A DNA stretch of 64,000 nucleotides. Origin: Leptospiraceae bacterium. GTDB taxonomy: Bacteria; Spirochaetota; Leptospiria; Leptospirales; Leptospiraceae. The stretch lies in assembly GCA_017996175.1 (NCBI GenBank), contig JAGOHK010000001.1:62001-126000 (forward strand), written 5' to 3'. Positions 21,200 through 35,765 of the stretch are shown piece by piece (the stretch's first letter is position 1; each line of letters opens with the position of its first letter). The notes below the pieces were generated by a model. The model was not told the DNA's origin, made no database searches, and saw only the letters and a program-made list of their open reading frames with translations. A program made the position numbers and the translations under genes.

Positions 21200-21325
21200 A
21201 AGAATACCACCGATGGGCACCGAGAGCACCGATAAAAGATACGATAATTCTTAAATATTCGTGATTTGGTTTATCCACATCATTTTTCATCGTTCTTTTA
21301 TCGGTGTCCATCGGTGGTAATCTTT
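21200..21325. repeat. Family 2 inverted-repeat element, copy 1
   Basis: Begins AATACCACCGATGGGCACCG and ends with TTATCGGTGTCCATCGGTGG, so the ends pair over about 20 bases with a roughly 80-base interior. The same terminal words recur at 46685-46853. No coding capacity. Confidence 0.65.
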
Positions 21326-23192: not shown

Positions 23193-23347
23193 TAACGTGA
23201 ATTCGATATAAGGAATTAGAATGATTTATTAAGCGCACCAAAGTGTCATTCCCGAGTTTTTTTGTCGGGAATCTCAACTTATACAGATCCCCGACAGAAA
23301 ATTTCGGGGATGACAAGAAGGTTAATCCTAACACCGAACGCATGTTA
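23193..23347. repeat. Family 1 element, copy D (complete)
   Basis: 155 bp, ends TAACGTGAATTCG and CGAACGCATGTTA, with internal arms GTCATTCCCGAG and CAGAAAATTTCGGGGATGAC. It lies between two convergent genes. Its last three bases (TTA) are the stop codon of the glutaredoxin-like gene on the minus strand, so the element defines that gene's end. Confidence 0.8.
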
Positions 23348-28864: not shown

Positions 28865-30208
28865 ATGCAAGAAACTCTAAATAAACTTATATCTGGTGAA
28901 CTTAAAGGTTGTACTCGGCTGAAATTATCCTGTAACCTAAATAAATTTCCTAGCGAAATATACTCGTTAGCCGATACACTTGAATTATTAGATCTATCTG
29001 CAAATAATTTTTCTGAATTACCGGAAGATTTTTTTCGTTTTCAAAAGCTAAAAATTCTTTTTCTTTCCGAAAATAATTTTACTACATTTCCGAAAGTTTT
29101 ATCCAAATGCCTGAACCTTGAGATGATTGGATTTAAGACAAATAAAATTTCTAATATAGACGAAGATAGTTTCCCGCCTAAATTACGATGGCTAATTCTT
29201 ACAAATAATAAGTTAAAGACACTCCCAAAGTCTATTGGAAAATGCAATCGACTACAGAAGCTAATGTTAGCAGGGAATTATCTAGAAGTTCTTCCAGCAG
29301 AGTTAGGTTTGTGCACAGATTTGGAACTACTCCGTATTTCTGCAAACCGAATAAAAGAATTACCTTCCTTACTTTTTTCTTTGCCAAAACTTGCTTGGTT
29401 AGCTTTTGCGGGTAATGAGCTTTTACCTATCGATTTTATTCATTCGTCAATTTCCGAATATCCGCTAGAGAATTTCAAACTAGGAAAAAAACTAGGAGAA
29501 GGTGCTTCCGGTAATATCTATGAAGCTGATTGGGTAAATAGCGATAAGCCGAAAGTTGCAATTAAAATTTTCAAGGGGGAAGTTACTAGCGATGGATTTC
29601 CAAGTGATGAAATCTCCGTATCTTTACAAGCAGACGTTCATCCAAATTTGGTTACTATAATCGGAAAAATCAAGGATTCCATTGAAGAAAAACAAGGTTT
29701 AGTATATGAATTAATTTCTGACTCCTATAAAAAATTAGGGAATCCTCCGGATTTTGAAACTTGCACTCGAGATACATTTCCAACAAAAATAACTTTTTCC
29801 ATTGAACAGATTTTGCGGATACTCGTAAGTATCTCCTCTGCCATGCTAAATCTTCACAAACAAGGAATCACCCACGGAGATTTGTACGCTCACAATATTT
29901 TAGTGGAAGAAACAAATTTTCATACCATTCTAGGAGATTTTGGCGCTGCCTCCTTTTACAATCGAAATTTTTCTCAAGCGCTTGCAATTGAGTTGATTGA
30001 AGTAAGAGCATTTGGCTGCCTCATGGATGACTTGATAGTAAGAATCTCTAAAGAAGATAAAGTGCATGAAGAATTCCACCATCTGGAAGTTCTGCGAGAT
30101 GAATGTATGAGTCCAAATATCACATACAGACCTAGCTTTATAAATATTTTCAATAAAATTTCTAAGCTAATATACAGATTCACTGAAAACTGTAATTTAA
30201 GTAACTGA
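28865..30208 (+). CDS. Leucine-rich-repeat protein kinase
   Basis: 447 residues. Residues 1-205 are about seven leucine-rich repeats (for example LELLDLSANNFSELPEDFF). From about 213 a eukaryote-like protein kinase domain follows: glycine loop GEGASGNIYEA, the VAIK lysine, a catalytic loop HGDLYAHNIL (Asp present, the usual Arg of HRD is Gly) and the metal motif GDFGAAS. All residues essential for phosphotransfer appear present, so it may be active. No signal or membrane helix, hence cytoplasmic. It fits the LRR-kinase type seen in scattered bacteria. No partner phosphatase is adjacent. The ATG lacks a clear Shine-Dalgarno. Confidence 0.88.
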   Translation: MQETLNKLISGELKGCTRLKLSCNLNKFPSEIYSLADTLELLDLSANNFSELPEDFFRFQKLKILFLSENNFTTFPKVLSKCLNLEMIGFKTNKISNIDEDSFPPKLRWLILTNNKLKTLPKSIGKCNRLQKLMLAGNYLEVLPAELGLCTDLELLRISANRIKELPSLLFSLPKLAWLAFAGNELLPIDFIHSSISEYPLENFKLGKKLGEGASGNIYEADWVNSDKPKVAIKIFKGEVTSDGFPSDEISVSLQADVHPNLVTIIGKIKDSIEEKQGLVYELISDSYKKLGNPPDFETCTRDTFPTKITFSIEQILRILVSISSAMLNLHKQGITHGDLYAHNILVEETNFHTILGDFGAASFYNRNFSQALAIELIEVRAFGCLMDDLIVRISKEDKVHEEFHHLEVLRDECMSPNITYRPSFINIFNKISKLIYRFTENCNLSN

Positions 30209-30251
30209 TGTTACGTAAAATTGATAATTTCGTGAACGGAAAATGATTTTT

Positions 30252-30360
30252 AGGATATTAGAAAATACTAATGAATTAATAGAATCAATTGCCTGCCTTA
30301 TGTTGCGCCCACTCGGAAGCAACATTGAGTTTGGCATGCCCGCCGCTAGGCGTAAACCTC
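30252..30360 (+). repeat. Family 4 repeat, copy 2
   Basis: Contains AGGATATTAGAAAATACTAA, then ATGAATTAAT, and further right GGCATGCCCGCCGCTAGGCG followed by TAAACCTC. The same two blocks in the same order occur at 43471-43545. The interior has a length difference between the copies. No coding frame. Confidence 0.5.
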
Positions 30361-30475
30361 ATTTGAACGGTTGGTTCACCTTATGTAAGGTGAGTTAAGT
30401 AAATAAGTTCATTGAGCCTATCAATAATTTAGTTGACTGGATAAGTAAGTTGCGTTTCCTTTGGAATAGTTAATT

Positions 30476-31276
30476 ATGAACTCAAATAAAAAATTAGCAA
30501 TAGCATCTTTAGGGTCTGATGAAAACGCCAAGAAAACGAGCGAAGAAAAAGCGGACACAGGTATTCGTGTAAGTAATATTATTAGCATGAATGAAGTGAC
30601 TATTTTTTTAGGTGATGATCATATTAAAGAAGTAATCAAATCAAATTACAATCGTCTCAGACATTTATTCGATAGGTACAATATAATCATAAAAGACAAA
30701 CAAGACGAGCGCATTCGTTTGATGAAAAGCTTTGACCAACCAATCGTAATTTTGAATCGAGAAAATCCTGACGCAACACCTGCTATGTCAGTTCCGTACA
30801 ATGAATATCATAGAATGCTAAAAGCTGATAAAAATGCAGAGTTTTTTAAATCCGAAATTTGTGTTCCTATCAAATATAGACAATACATCATCATCGGCTA
30901 TGTCCAAGTCATGCATTCTAAACGCCTAGATTTAAATTCATTTAACGTTGTCGCGTTAGCCGCTTCTTCTATTCGGAAAGAAATTAGTGATTATAAAAAT
31001 TATGAAGAGTCAACAGAAGTATGCAGAGTAACTAGCATCACAGAAACCGATGTTACTTTTTTACATTCTCTCAATAAACATTTCTCTAGAATTTTTCAAA
31101 TGGGAGCAGTTGTTATATTGGATCTTTATTCTAAAGATACTAAGATTACAATCAAAGCATCTATTAAGGGATTAAAACCTCTTGATAAACATTTTTCTGT
31201 TACCTGCCAATTTGTAAATATGTCAATTGACCAGTATGAAAAAATCGAAAAATTAGTTATGCCATCTTCCGGCTAA
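30476..31276 (+). CDS. Conserved hypothetical protein, unknown
   Basis: 266 residues, no signal peptide. Two halves separated by a helix: residues about 60-165 read like a small sensor or dimerisation fold (VPIKYRQYIIIGYVQVMHSK) and about 180-262 are beta-rich (VCRVTSITETDVTFL ... VVILDLYSKDTKITIKASIKGL), reminiscent of PilZ-like domains, although the RxxxR and D/NxSxxG ligand motifs of PilZ are not seen. It might belong to a Leptospira-specific family such as DUF1577; I could not test that. It precedes, and converges with, the two-component cluster. Confidence 0.6.
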   Translation: MNSNKKLAIASLGSDENAKKTSEEKADTGIRVSNIISMNEVTIFLGDDHIKEVIKSNYNRLRHLFDRYNIIIKDKQDERIRLMKSFDQPIVILNRENPDATPAMSVPYNEYHRMLKADKNAEFFKSEICVPIKYRQYIIIGYVQVMHSKRLDLNSFNVVALAASSIRKEISDYKNYEESTEVCRVTSITETDVTFLHSLNKHFSRIFQMGAVVILDLYSKDTKITIKASIKGLKPLDKHFSVTCQFVNMSIDQYEKIEKLVMPSSG

Positions 31277-31288
31277 TTTCATTATACC

Positions 31289-31655
31289 TTAAATTGCATG
31301 GGCACAAAATGCTATATCTCGATTTGTTTGATTTACACCTAACCCAATTTTTGCTTTAAACCATTGTCTATCTACATCGACTAAACTAATTAGAGCAATC
31401 GGAGTATTACAGATATACCAAACGCCAAAAGAAATTACCCCTTCGTTTTTTAAAAGAGCCTCGCTATCGCTATTTTTGGCGTTTGGGAATACCCTATTTT
31501 TTACAAATTGTGTAATTACTTTTGGCGAAGGGTATATAAGCCGCAAGACTTGCAATATCGTTGTATTCTGTTTCCTCTAGAGTATCTAGGATATTGTATT
31601 CACGTAATTTTTGAATACTTTCAGGCTCATTGTTCGGTAAGTCGGGGGATAACAT
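31289..31655 (-). pseudogene. Truncated GAF-domain gene interrupted by a miniature element
   Basis: Read on the minus strand from an ATG at 31655 (GAGGAA just before it), the frame gives [20 protein letters not shown] and DIASLAAYI, then is broken; after 31414 it resumes in another frame with [20 protein letters not shown] and ends [10 protein letters not shown]-stop. This is the N-terminal part (about 85 residues) of the GAF domain found at the start of the hybrid kinase at 32823-35765. The break is an insertion of 121 bases. The 3' part of the domain is missing. It is a decayed partial duplication. Confidence 0.8.
31416..31534. mobile_element. Miniature inverted-repeat element (about 119 bp) with TA ends
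   Basis: Ends TACCAAACGCCAAAAGAAAT and, as reverse complement of the right end, TACCCTTCGCCAAAAGTAAT: about 20-bp imperfect terminal inverted repeats. The ends lie in TA-rich flanks, and removal of the element plus one TA restores the sequence and frame of the homologous GAF gene (CAGATATAAGCC). A TA target duplication is typical of the IS630/Tc1-mariner group. There is no transposase. A related terminal sequence (CCAAACGACAAAAGTAATTA) is present at 43234. Confidence 0.7.
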
Positions 31656-31723: not shown

Positions 31724-32830
31724 CTAATCACCTGCTTCTAAATATAAAATTACTTCTGTGCCATGATTTTGGCTAGGTTTTTCTAGTGATTTTATTACAA
31801 TTTTTCCCCCAGAAAGTTCTACAAACTTCTTTACAAGGGGCATACCATACCCTGTTCCCCTTTCTCCTGCTGTTCCTACTCTACTAATAGATTTTCCTAT
31901 ATCAAAAATATTTTCTAAAATTTCTTTAGGCATACCCATTCCAAAATCTTTAATAGACAGAATTACTTGTTTTTCTTTTTGATATGCGTCAACCGCAATA
32001 GAAGAATTCGGAAAAGAAAATTTTATAGCATTGGTTATTAGATTACTTAAAACTGAATGAACAAAAGAATTCCCATCTACAAAAACTTTTAGGTTAGAGG
32101 AAATATTTATTTCTACTTTAATACCCTTTTCTCTTAGTTTATTTTGAAAAATAAAAAATGTAGACTTAATGATATTCTCTAAATTAACATAAGTCATTTC
32201 AGGAATATACTTTTGGTCATCAATGCTGTACATTTTTCTTACACTTTCCAAAATATTCAGACAGTTTTCGGTTGCTTTTATCATTAAATGATTCATTTCA
32301 GAATATATATTAGGATCTTTTTCTGCCATATCATTAATAGATTTAATCGCGGCAATCGGGTTACGCAAATCATGCAAAAGTATTCTAACTAATTGTTTAT
32401 TTTTATTGCTCGCTTCACTTAATTCATCTTTTTTTTCTTTTAAAATTAATTGCAGATGAACTCGTGCCAATAATTCCGAATGATTGAATGGCTTAGTGAT
32501 ATAATCCGCTCCACCTATATCGAATGCCTTGACCAAATCTTCCGTTTCAGTTCTAGCCGTTAAAAATATTACAGGTATATGAGATAAATGCTCTTGCTGT
32601 TTTAAATTTTTGCACGTTTCATATCCATCCATTTCTGGCATATTAATGTCTAATAAAATTAGATCAGGTGTTTTTTTCTCGACAGCGTGTAATGCTTGTT
32701 TGCCATTAGTAGCTAACAAAATTTTATACCCTTGCTCCGATAAAATTTGACCTAACAATTGAATATTTTTTGGTGTATCGTCTACAATCAATATCTGGTG
32801 TTCTTTCTTTAATTTTTCCAAGTCAAACAT
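31724..32830 (-). CDS. Response regulator-histidine kinase fusion (REC-HisKA-HATPase)
   Basis: 368 residues. A receiver domain comes first (about 12-130; phospho-acceptor Asp in LILLDINMPEMDG, Thr in FLTART, Lys in YITKPFN), then a coiled linker and a histidine kinase core with H-box LLHDLRNPIAAIKS (about residue 152) and an ATPase domain with NLITNAIKFS, IKDFGMGMP and GTGYGMPLVKKF. Soluble. It overlaps the upstream hybrid kinase gene by eight bases and is the last intact gene of the cluster. The REC-first layout suggests that it receives phosphate from one of the hybrid kinases and signals onward. Confidence 0.9.
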   Translation of the reverse strand: MFDLEKLKKEHQILIVDDTPKNIQLLGQILSEQGYKILLATNGKQALHAVEKKTPDLILLDINMPEMDGYETCKNLKQQEHLSHIPVIFLTARTETEDLVKAFDIGGADYITKPFNHSELLARVHLQLILKEKKDELSEASNKNKQLVRILLHDLRNPIAAIKSINDMAEKDPNIYSEMNHLMIKATENCLNILESVRKMYSIDDQKYIPEMTYVNLENIIKSTFFIFQNKLREKGIKVEINISSNLKVFVDGNSFVHSVLSNLITNAIKFSFPNSSIAVDAYQKEKQVILSIKDFGMGMPKEILENIFDIGKSISRVGTAGERGTGYGMPLVKKFVELSGGKIVIKSLEKPSQNHGTEVILYLEAGD

Positions 32831-35765
32831 CCTTCTTTTTACTTGAATCAGTATTAATTTTTGGGATTTCTATTGATAAAGGTTTATTTTTTAAGTACTC
32901 TAGTAATACTCCTAACAACTGCCGACGGGTAACTGGCTTTTGAAGATAACCGTCAGATAAAGACATTACCTCAAATTTCGTTTGCTCAAATGCAGAGGCA
33001 GTCAATGCGAGTATAGGAATGTTTTGCAAATCTTTAAACTCTTTGATTTTTTTAATCGCTTCCAATCCATTCATCACCGGCATTTTTATATCCATCAGAA
33101 TAAGATTCGGCTTATGCTCATTTGCCATCTCTACAGCAATTTTCCCATTTTCTGCTTGTATGATTTTTAATTCACGATATTTTCTTAAAAACTGAATGAC
33201 TAATTCGCGATTCAAGGCTACATCATCTACTAATAAAATCGTGGCTGGCTCAAATTGAACATTTTCAATGACTACCATCAACTCATCTTGAGTTTCAACT
33301 TTTATTTTTGTATCTGAAATAATTTCTACATTTGTTAAGAATATAGAAAATGTAGTACCAACTCCTTTTTTACTTGATAAAGAAATTTCTCCATTCATCA
33401 GTACTACTAATTTTTTTGCAATGGCAAGTCCAAGACCTGTGCCCCCATATTTACTTTGGTCTTGACCACTACTCTGCATAAATGCATCAAATATATTATC
33501 AAGATCTTGTTCAGAAATTCCTATCCCTGTATCATTTATACCTATCATTAAATTTAATTTATCTTTTTCTGAGTTCAGGTATATTGCATGAACGGTTACT
33601 CTGATGTAGCCTACATCAGTAAATTTTACAGCATTTCCAATTAGATTAAGTAGGACTTGTCGTAATCGCATTTCATCCAAAGCTAAAAATTCGGGTAAAT
33701 CCGAATCTATATCTACTTGAAAATCTAATTTTTTCTCGTTTAATTTTTGAGAAAAAATAATTTCCATTTCTTGTAATATTTTTCTGATGCTAACAGAAGA
33801 ATAATGTAGTTCTATTTTTCCTGATTCTATCTTTGATAGGTCTAGAACATCATTTATGAGGGTTAATAATACTTTTCCGCTAGTCATAATTGAATTTGAA
33901 TACTGCTTCAAACTTTCATCTTCTACTTTTGAACTTAATAATTCCCCAAATCCTAAAATAGCATTCATTGGAGTCCGAATTTCATGGCTTATATTTGCTA
34001 AAAATTCACTTTTTGCCTTATTAGCGAAATCAGCGTCCTCTTTCGCTTTCTCAGCTTCTTCTTTTGCATGGATTAACTCCAATTCAAACTGTTTTTTATC
34101 TGTAATATCTCTAAAACTAGCAAGCGCTCCATAAATTTTTTTATCTTTATTGAATAACGGAACGGCGTATACGGATAACCATCGTTTAACTCGTTCATTA
34201 TTTATAATAAAATATTCAGTTGGTCCAACATCATGTCCTTCGCTCATTGCAATTGCTAGAGGAAGTTTATCTGGTGGATAAGGATTACCTTGATTATCCG
34301 TTTGATTCCACTCCTTTGCATTAAAATATTTTCCTGTAATTTCTCCCTCTTTAATATTTAATATTCTATTTGCACCTTTGTTGGCGTAGACAATTTCGCC
34401 CTTTAAATTTATTTCAACCAAACCCTCTGGTACAGATTCTAAAACTTCTGTAAGTTTATTTCTAGCTTCTTTTAAAGATTTCTCTGTATGTTTTAATTCA
34501 GATATGTCAGTGACTAATACAAGAAACCCTTTAACTTTCCCATCTACTATATCCGGAATATATTGAATCCAGGTATATCCTGATTTACCACTAGGTTCTC
34601 TTTCGAAACTCTGTATTTCGCCAGCGAGAACTCGTGCGATTCTATACTCATTCCTTCGATAGATATTTTTTCCTATTAAGTCCTCCATTTTTTTTCCAAT
34701 CACTTCCTGCTGTGTCATTCCCATCCATTCGCGGTAAGAGCTATTTGCGAAAGCACAAAGTAAATCCTTAGTCCAATACCCTATCATACCAGGAATTGAA
34801 TCTGTTACTTTTTGAATGAAATGATTTTGATCTAATAATTGGCTTTCTAATCGTTTACTTTCAGATATATCTCTTGCGATTAGGGTTAGTCCGGTTACAT
34901 TTTCTCCTGATATTATGGGGCTAACATGTGTTAGATACCAAGTTGTGGTTCCGTCCGGGTTAATAAATTCTGATTCATATTTTAAATTCTTTTTTTTTGA
35001 GATAGCCTCTTTATGTTTTTCAATTACAAATTCAGAATACTTTGGAGTTACAAAATTTTTAGCATTAACACCTATTACACTCTCACGCGGAATTCCCTCC
35101 ACAGTTCTATTTATGAACACGATTTCATTTTCAAGATTTAGTTTCATGATTACATCAGGAGCATTCTCAACAAGGGACTTATATTTTTCTTCACTCTCAA
35201 TTCTTTCCTTTTCAATTTGCTTATTTTTATTGTCCGTTTTCATGATGAGTTGCAATTGATTTTGACTTTCATTTAGTTTTAAACGAAGTTCAAGTAAGGA
35301 AACAATATTTCGGCTCAAAGATTTAAGTGCATTGATTTGTTTATCGTTTAACGTCTTTGGAGAATTGTCGATTACACAAATTGTTCCAATGGAATAACCC
35401 TCTGGGGTGATGATCGGAGCACCTGCATAAAATTTTACATTTGGAAAACCCGTTACAAGTGGATTATCCTGAAATCTTTCATCAAGAGAAGAATCTGGAA
35501 CATTAAATATATCTTCTCCCAAAATTGCATGAGCACAAAATGCTATGTCGCGATGAGTTTCATTTATATCGAGACCTATTTTGGATTTAAACCACTGTCG
35601 CTCACCATCAATTAGACTAATCAATGCAATAGGAGTGTCGCAAATATAAGCTGCCAATTCAGCTATATCATCATACTCTTTTTCGGCTAACGTATCTAAT
35701 ATATCATAACTCTTTAATTTCTGGAGTCTTTCGTTTTCATTAGTTGGAAATTTTGCGGGAGTCAT
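32823..35765 (-). CDS. Hybrid sensor histidine kinase (GAF-PAS-PAS-PAS-HisKA-HATPase-REC)
   Basis: 980 residues, no membrane segment. A GAF domain (about 20-165; starts RLQKLKSYDILDTLAEKEYD), three PAS domains (about 190-310, 315-430, 435-560), a coiled coil, the kinase core with [18 protein letters not shown], the ATPase domain (NLIGNAVKFTD, NDTGIGIS, GGTGLGLAIAKKL) and a C-terminal receiver ([13 protein letters not shown]). The kinase, last PAS and REC parts are very close to those of the gene upstream (35784-39500), so the two arose by duplication with exchange of the sensory front end. 18 bases separate the two genes. Confidence 0.93.
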   Translation of the reverse strand: MTPAKFPTNENERLQKLKSYDILDTLAEKEYDDIAELAAYICDTPIALISLIDGERQWFKSKIGLDINETHRDIAFCAHAILGEDIFNVPDSSLDERFQDNPLVTGFPNVKFYAGAPIITPEGYSIGTICVIDNSPKTLNDKQINALKSLSRNIVSLLELRLKLNESQNQLQLIMKTDNKNKQIEKERIESEEKYKSLVENAPDVIMKLNLENEIVFINRTVEGIPRESVIGVNAKNFVTPKYSEFVIEKHKEAISKKKNLKYESEFINPDGTTTWYLTHVSPIISGENVTGLTLIARDISESKRLESQLLDQNHFIQKVTDSIPGMIGYWTKDLLCAFANSSYREWMGMTQQEVIGKKMEDLIGKNIYRRNEYRIARVLAGEIQSFEREPSGKSGYTWIQYIPDIVDGKVKGFLVLVTDISELKHTEKSLKEARNKLTEVLESVPEGLVEINLKGEIVYANKGANRILNIKEGEITGKYFNAKEWNQTDNQGNPYPPDKLPLAIAMSEGHDVGPTEYFIINNERVKRWLSVYAVPLFNKDKKIYGALASFRDITDKKQFELELIHAKEEAEKAKEDADFANKAKSEFLANISHEIRTPMNAILGFGELLSSKVEDESLKQYSNSIMTSGKVLLTLINDVLDLSKIESGKIELHYSSVSIRKILQEMEIIFSQKLNEKKLDFQVDIDSDLPEFLALDEMRLRQVLLNLIGNAVKFTDVGYIRVTVHAIYLNSEKDKLNLMIGINDTGIGISEQDLDNIFDAFMQSSGQDQSKYGGTGLGLAIAKKLVVLMNGEISLSSKKGVGTTFSIFLTNVEIISDTKIKVETQDELMVVIENVQFEPATILLVDDVALNRELVIQFLRKYRELKIIQAENGKIAVEMANEHKPNLILMDIKMPVMNGLEAIKKIKEFKDLQNIPILALTASAFEQTKFEVMSLSDGYLQKPVTRRQLLGVLLEYLKNKPLSIEIPKINTDSSKKKDV

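What the first reader, a model, noticed from the sequence alone, without database searches (positions are those of the whole stretch)
28865..30208. Leucine-rich-repeat eukaryote-like kinase with HGD in the catalytic loop
It combines a plant-like LRR front with a kinase whose activation-loop Arg is absent (HGD instead of HRD), as in non-RD kinases that are often immune-type receptors in eukaryotes. In bacteria the role of this type is unknown. It is a lone gene without cognate phosphatase or receptor.
Basis: partly seen in the sequence, partly recalled or inferred. Interest (0 to 1): 0.5.

Follow-up and report, generated by a model that had tools for sequence, protein, structure and literature searches.

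The report
LRR kinase lacking an activation loop
This gene makes a soluble bacterial enzyme, shared with many proteobacteria and probably acquired from them, that joins an unusually well conserved leucine-rich-repeat binding surface to a cut-down protein kinase whose usual on/off loop is missing, so it does not work like a plant immune receptor.

Summary
The gene is real: 28865-30208 (+), 447 aa, seven leucine-rich repeats followed by a kinase domain with HGD in the catalytic loop. It belongs to a coherent family found in 49 of 398 genomes of one Pseudomonadota draw but only 3 of 296 of the window's own phylum, all in the window's genus. The genus clade is nested among pseudomonadotal sequences, so transfer is likely. 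NCBI names the family 'leucine-rich repeat-containing protein kinase family protein'; Vibrio splendidus STPKLRR (PMC10237653) very probably belongs to it. HGD is not an immune-receptor mark here: after DFG about 20 residues lead straight into helix F, with no APE motif in 48 of 48 members, so the arginine has no phosphorylated loop to bind. Catalytic residues are kept. The unexpected feature is the LRR: its concave-face positions are more conserved than the kinase in 496 of 496 sequence pairs, which points to one conserved, probably internal, ligand or docking partner. Within the genus the gene travels with a PilZ-like gene. New member of a known, almost unstudied kind.

The parts
28865..30208 (+). 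LRR-kinase gene, 447 aa
   Evidence: ORF; Pfam LRR_8, PK_Tyr_Ser-Thr, Pkinase; AlphaFold2 model pLDDT 94.3, pTM 0.92
28979..29434 (+). seven leucine-rich repeats, residues 39 to about 190, period 22-23; concave-face residues E40, F66, S68, R108, W109, T113, K132, E154, R157, W178 nearly invariant
29474..30154 (+). kinase domain, residues 204 to about 430
   Evidence: Pfam, model of the domain alone pLDDT 93.7, VIA-align Z about 22 to RIP3, BRAF, TNNI3K
29492..29512 (+). glycine-rich loop LGEGASG, residues 210-216
29564..29566 (+). catalytic lysine K234, 48 of 48
29873..29896 (+). catalytic loop HGDLYAHN, residues 337-344
   Evidence: 48 of 48 keep H337, G338, D339, Y341, H343, N344
29936..30037 (+). 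DFG (358-360) followed after 11 residues by helix 372-391; activation loop, P+1 loop and APE missing
   Evidence: median 20 residues from DFG to R-A-F in 48 members, no xPE within 45 residues in 48 of 48; helix from residue 372 in the model
30250..30400 (.). copy of a dispersed intergenic repeat between the kinase and its partner gene
   Evidence: 47 matches in the window's genome; the gap is 107 and 43 bases in the two sister species
30476..31276 (+). partner gene, 266 aa, weak PilZ-like C-terminus; next to the kinase in all three kinase-bearing species of the genus
   Evidence: 83-84% identical in sister species; PilZ E=0.0094, below cut-off; best match only 33% in the species of the genus without the kinase

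Best explanation
A soluble, single-chain bacterial kinase of the 'leucine-rich repeat-containing protein kinase family'. Shown: membership of a coherent family; complete catalytic set; no activation loop or APE; no transmembrane segment; the LRR concave face is the most conserved non-consensus surface of the protein. Inferred: it is an active kinase that needs no loop phosphorylation, which is why the RD arginine is dispensable. Inferred: the LRR concave face binds one conserved molecule of the bacterium's own cell, either the substrate, docked by the LRR in place of the missing P+1 loop, or a regulator. Inferred: the gene came into the ancestor of the window's genus from Pseudomonadota and there became coupled to the downstream PilZ-like gene, whose product is a candidate substrate or partner.
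For: K234, H337, G338, D339, N344, D358, G360 in 48 of 48 and E249 in 47 of 48. Activation segment missing by sequence and in two confident models. Concave-face positions 72.5% mean pairwise identity against 51.9% for the kinase without loops and 49.8% for all LRR non-consensus positions, higher than the kinase in 496 of 496 pairs; in 48 members 0.673 against 0.363 for the other non-consensus LRR positions, reached by 0 of 20000 relabellings. Highest 19-residue hydropathy 1.34. N-terminus conserved from the first residues and helical, so no free secretion signal is visible. Pair kept in 3 of 3 species while the outer neighbours map to other contigs. Kinase activity on serine reported for V. 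splendidus STPKLRR (PMC10237653).
Against: No activity, ligand or substrate is known for the window protein. The only published relative is described as a secreted effector acting on a host protein. Conserved concave residues could instead hold the kinase domain itself (autoinhibition); I had no coordinates to test this. The PilZ-like partner is confined to the genus as a neighbour, so it cannot be the general family ligand. The pairing rests on three species.
Confidence: 0.55

Rival explanations
1. Secreted effector, as claimed for V. splendidus STPKLRR: the kinase is injected into a eukaryotic host cell and phosphorylates a host protein recognised by the LRR.
For: PMC10237653 reports translocation, in vitro phosphorylation of tropomodulin S52 and a knock-out phenotype.
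Against: The injectisome secretin TIGR02516 passes its cut-off in only 6 of 54 kinase-bearing genomes and not in the window's genome. The N-terminus is conserved and folded, with no free signal. The concave face is alike across the family, while the reported host site S52 is said to be unique to one host species.
Confidence: 0.12
2. Autoinhibited switch: the LRR concave face clasps the protein's own kinase domain, and a ligand or partner releases it.
For: Concave-face conservation, a confident fixed arrangement of both domains (pTM 0.92), and conserved kinase-specific motifs (S242-D243-G244, C300-T301-R302-D303) that could be the docking site.
Against: No coordinates were available to check contact; nothing shows low basal activity.
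Confidence: 0.2
3. Not a protein kinase in practice: a small-molecule or glycan kinase that uses the HGDxxxHN loop as Kdo/heptose or aminoglycoside kinases do (that likeness is recalled).
For: HGD and the missing activation segment recall those families; PF06293 (Kdo/WaaP) scores 23.6 bits against a cut-off of 21.3.
Against: That match covers only 44 of 207 profile positions. By fold the domain is closest to TKL and tyrosine protein kinases, Z about 22 over 209-229 residues; a glycine-rich loop and DFG are present. A probable relative phosphorylates protein.
Confidence: 0.1
4. Immune-type non-RD receptor kinase acquired from a eukaryote.
For: LRR and non-RD kinase in one chain; TKL-like fold.
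Against: No transmembrane segment, no activation segment, 23-residue repeats without the plant GxIP form, hyper-conserved concave face, and a family spread over bacteria. No eukaryotic sequence set was available to test an older source.
Confidence: 0.03

Closest known systems
NCBI 'leucine-rich repeat-containing protein kinase family protein' (e.g. WP_089418300.1 Vitreoscilla, BEI72309.1 Paraburkholderia)
   Same: Same length, domain order, HGDxYxHN loop and DFG-to-helix-F shortcut; 37% and 44% identical to the window protein
   Different: The window copy lies in a different phylum and is paired with a PilZ-like gene
STPKLRR of Vibrio splendidus AJ01 (PMC10237653)
   Same: LRR 35-168, kinase 203-403, LGQG at 209-212: LGQG at residue 209 in five members here, one of them a named Vibrio
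   Different: Claimed type III effector; the window genome has no injectisome secretin over cut-off. Its sequence was not fetched.
Minimal effector kinases without a normal activation segment (SteC, OspG, NleH)
   Same: SteC: no APE-like motif, HRD-like motif without Arg, small C lobe (PMC13395416, passages read); OspG and NleH recalled
   Different: No LRR in those as I recall; no sequence relationship tested
Plant non-RD LRR receptor kinases (EFR, XA21, FLS2)
   Same: LRR and non-RD kinase in one protein
   Different: Those are membrane receptors with a full activation segment (recalled); here neither is present
MADS kinase MAD6 and PD-T4-6 (anti-phage, PADLOC)
   Same: Best PADLOC matches of the protein, 1.3e-21 and 3e-11, in the kinase domain
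   Different: Partial kinase-domain matches only; no regular neighbours of any kind found across the family

Membership tests
LRR-containing protein kinase family (STPKLRR type) | N-terminal LRR followed by one C-terminal kinase, about 400-480 aa, aligned over the whole length | tested here: met
   A1 (11 other rows, 37-56% identity to the window) and A2 (31 other rows, 42-56%)
LRR-containing protein kinase family (STPKLRR type) | HGDxYxHN catalytic loop and DFG directly followed by helix F | tested here: met
LRR-containing protein kinase family (STPKLRR type) | Published member STPKLRR itself aligns with the window protein | tested here: inconclusive
   Only its printed domain limits and motifs were compared; its sequence was not fetched
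LRR-containing protein kinase family (STPKLRR type) | Phosphorylates protein serine | not testable with these tools
   Reported for STPKLRR only
Type III secretion effector | Injectisome in the same genome | tested here: not met
   TIGR02516 best match 130.5 bits against a cut-off of 238.45 in G000, which is 92% complete; other injectisome parts not searched
Plant-type non-RD LRR receptor kinase | No Arg before the catalytic Asp | tested here: met
   HGD
Plant-type non-RD LRR receptor kinase | Transmembrane segment between LRR and kinase | tested here: not met
   Best 19-residue hydropathy 1.34, at residues 309-327 inside the kinase
Plant-type non-RD LRR receptor kinase | Complete activation segment with APE | tested here: not met
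   0 of 48 members have xPE within 45 residues of DFG
Plant-type non-RD LRR receptor kinase | 24-residue plant-specific repeats (LxGxIP, recalled) | tested here: not met
   22-23 residue repeats, no GxIP
Kdo/WaaP lipopolysaccharide kinase | Match over the whole profile | tested here: not met
   PF06293 over its cut-off but only 44 of 207 positions
MADS anti-phage kinase MAD6 | Match over the whole protein | tested here: not met
   Positions 47-206 of 659 (PADLOC); NCBIfam 35.4 bits against a cut-off of 460

The most novel reading that the evidence does not exclude
A general bacterial regulatory kinase in which a hyper-conserved LRR concave face has taken over the task of the lost activation segment, docking one universally present bacterial molecule onto an always-open active site. 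This would be a new way to build and control a protein kinase, and it would mean that the published injected role of a Vibrio relative is a secondary use.
Probability: 0.25. Interest if true: 0.65.

Novelty: new member of a known kind. Interest (0 to 1): 0.4.

Why it matters
About one in eight of the sampled Pseudomonadota genomes carries this kinase (49 of 398), yet I found one functional paper on the type. Its architecture makes a clean test: a kinase without an activation loop, with an invariant LRR face whose residues can be named and mutated. Finding the ligand would show what a widespread bacterial LRR kinase reads and would settle whether the claimed effector role is general.

Tried and rejected
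Plant or eukaryote origin: the window's genus is nested among Pseudomonadota, but no eukaryotic sequence set was available, so a eukaryotic source further back is not excluded.

Phage or mobile-defence origin: no match of the kinase domain in 50,697 phage records and none in viral contigs by the single-sequence query (a weak search). PADLOC matches are partial.

Conserved operon across the family: none. In the 43 of 48 loci where the script kept the kinase ORF, the widest other cluster reached 11 loci at scattered offsets. Five loci (L086, L105, L111, L113, L117) were dropped there by the ORF filter and later read by profile.

Genome-contig scan: the single-sequence query found only 2 loci, so distribution rests on the genome search. 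One draw of the class of G062 gave 2 of 185 (single protein, 1e-25) and the phylum draw 49 of 398 (profile, 1e-40); the samples differ in make-up and the figures should not be merged.

VIA-align: Kdo, Bud32, OspG and NleH structures do not appear among the 50 rows shown; this excludes nothing.

Canonical comparison: the script printed motifs for 4 of the 8 other kinase loci of the genome that were held (L001-L004, all HRD with SPE visible; the distance was measured for L001 and L002 only); the other four did not match its pattern.

Papers: PMC10237653 (abstract, found passages, section 9), PMC13395416 (passages). All others were seen in listings only. Searches for prior descriptions of the family.

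Full report
What is there. The ORF at 28865-30208 (+) is 447 codons long and starts with ATG. Pfam finds leucine-rich repeats and a protein kinase domain. Repeats start at residues 39, 62, 85, 107, 130, 153 and 176, a 22-23 residue period. The AlphaFold2 model, made from an alignment of 32 sequences, has mean pLDDT 94.3 and pTM 0.92, with no segment under 50. There is no transmembrane stretch (highest 19-residue hydropathy 1.34).

Family and spread. Full-length relatives are found in Paraburkholderia, Caballeronia, Burkholderia, Aeromonas, Vibrio, Vitreoscilla and Roseomonas records. They occur in 49 of 398 genomes of a phylum draw centred on a Dasania genome, in 2 of 185 of a class draw, and in 2 of 286 of the phylum of a Kaiserbacteria genome. 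In the window's own phylum only 3 of 296 genomes have it, all of one genus (same result with a single-sequence query). A fourth species of that genus, 99% complete, lacks it. A maximum-likelihood tree of 48 members puts the three genus sequences together (support 100/98), inside a larger clade with many pseudomonadotal rows. The tree is unrooted (midpoint for drawing) and some rows deviate in composition, the genus rows among them, so transfer from Pseudomonadota is likely but not proven. The name of the window's organism was not given; the gene content looks Leptospira-like to me, which is recall and not a test.

Why HGD. In 48 of 48 members the catalytic loop is HGD. K234, D339, N344, D358 and G360 are kept in 48 of 48 and E249 in 47 of 48, so the family is not a set of pseudokinases by sequence. 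From DFG to the R-A-F of helix F the script found 9-23 residues, median 20, and no xPE motif within 45 residues in any of 48. In the model helix 372-391 follows DFG360 after 11 residues. Two canonical kinases of the same genome that the script could measure (L001, L002) have HRD, SPE and 37 residues between the corresponding landmarks. The arginine of HRD normally contacts a phosphorylated activation loop (established knowledge). Without the loop it has nothing to hold. The non-RD state is thus explained by a shortened kinase and not by kinship with plant immune receptors. By fold the domain is closest to TKL and tyrosine kinases such as RIP3, BRAF and TNNI3K (Z 21-22, rmsd 2.6-4.2, 209-229 residues aligned).

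The LRR face. The LRR half is more conserved than the kinase half in 485 of 496 sequence pairs of A2. Five concave-face positions of each repeat average 72.5% pairwise identity, against 51.9% for the kinase without loops and 49.8% for all LRR non-consensus positions, and exceed the kinase in 496 of 496 pairs. In the 48-member set the values are 0.673 for the face and 0.363 for the other non-consensus LRR positions; random relabelling reached the difference 0 of 20000 times. The pairs share ancestry and are not independent, so the relabelling speaks for positions, not for lineages, and no other LRR family was run as a control. Nearly invariant face residues include E40, F66, S68, R108, W109, T113, K132, E154, R157 and W178. 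A surface kept alike across alpha-, beta- and gammaproteobacteria and this genus should bind something that all these cells contain, or bind the protein's own kinase domain.

Effector or not. Vibrio splendidus STPKLRR is reported as a type III effector that phosphorylates tropomodulin serine 52 (PMC10237653; abstract, passages and section 9 read). Its printed landmarks (kinase 203-403, LGQG at 209-212) coincide with five members here, one a named Vibrio, so I take it as a family member, though its sequence was not fetched. Among 54 genomes that carry the kinase, the injectisome secretin passes the cut-off in 6; the window's genome has only a 130.5-bit match against a cut-off of 238.45. A few sub-cut-off partial matches (e.g. 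in G615, G768) could be divergent injectisomes. The N-terminus is conserved and helical from residue 2. An injected role may be true for that Vibrio; it is unlikely to be the common function.

Neighbourhood. No gene family is a regular neighbour over 43 loci. In the window's genus, however, a 266-aa gene follows the kinase on the same strand in 3 of 3 species (84% and 83% identical, against 57% and 54% for the kinase). The genes on either side of the pair map to other contigs in both sister species where a match was found, and the species without the kinase has only a 33% match to the partner. A genome of another genus of the family (G007) has a longer, 57% identical homologue without a detected kinase; that genome is 75% complete. 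The partner has a weak PilZ-like C-terminus below the Pfam cut-off. In the window a dispersed repeat (47 matches in the genome) lies in the gap between the two genes.

Verdict. The gene is a horizontally spread, little-studied bacterial LRR kinase. Its two notable traits, the missing activation segment and the hyper-conserved LRR face, lead to a testable docking or autoinhibition model. I found no print description of these traits in the searches named under Tried and rejected.

Noticed in passing
window 30250-30400: Dispersed intergenic repeat, 47 matches of whole or parts in the window's genome; further copies in a sister species.
   Followed up: partly
window 21200-21325, 23244-23316, 31413-31542: Other short repeats with several to many copies in sister genomes; the second matches on both strands, so it looks palindromic.
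   Followed up: no
window 31289-31555 (-): An 88-aa ORF resembles, by eye, the start of the 980-aa sensor histidine kinase at 32823-35765, as if a truncated duplicate.
   Followed up: no
window genome G000: 21 of 22 Pkinase matches are over the cut-off; ten lie in open frames of 1,762-1,932 aa, apparently large multidomain kinases.
   Followed up: no
L041 1375-2721 / L039 5326-6672: The Candidatus Kaiserbacteria copy has lost the glycine-loop motif but keeps Lys, HGD and DFG; a second member occurs in another genome of that phylum, G907.
   Followed up: partly
G624:C39:46172-47451: Family member split over two overlapping matches with a stop, possibly a broken gene.
   Followed up: no
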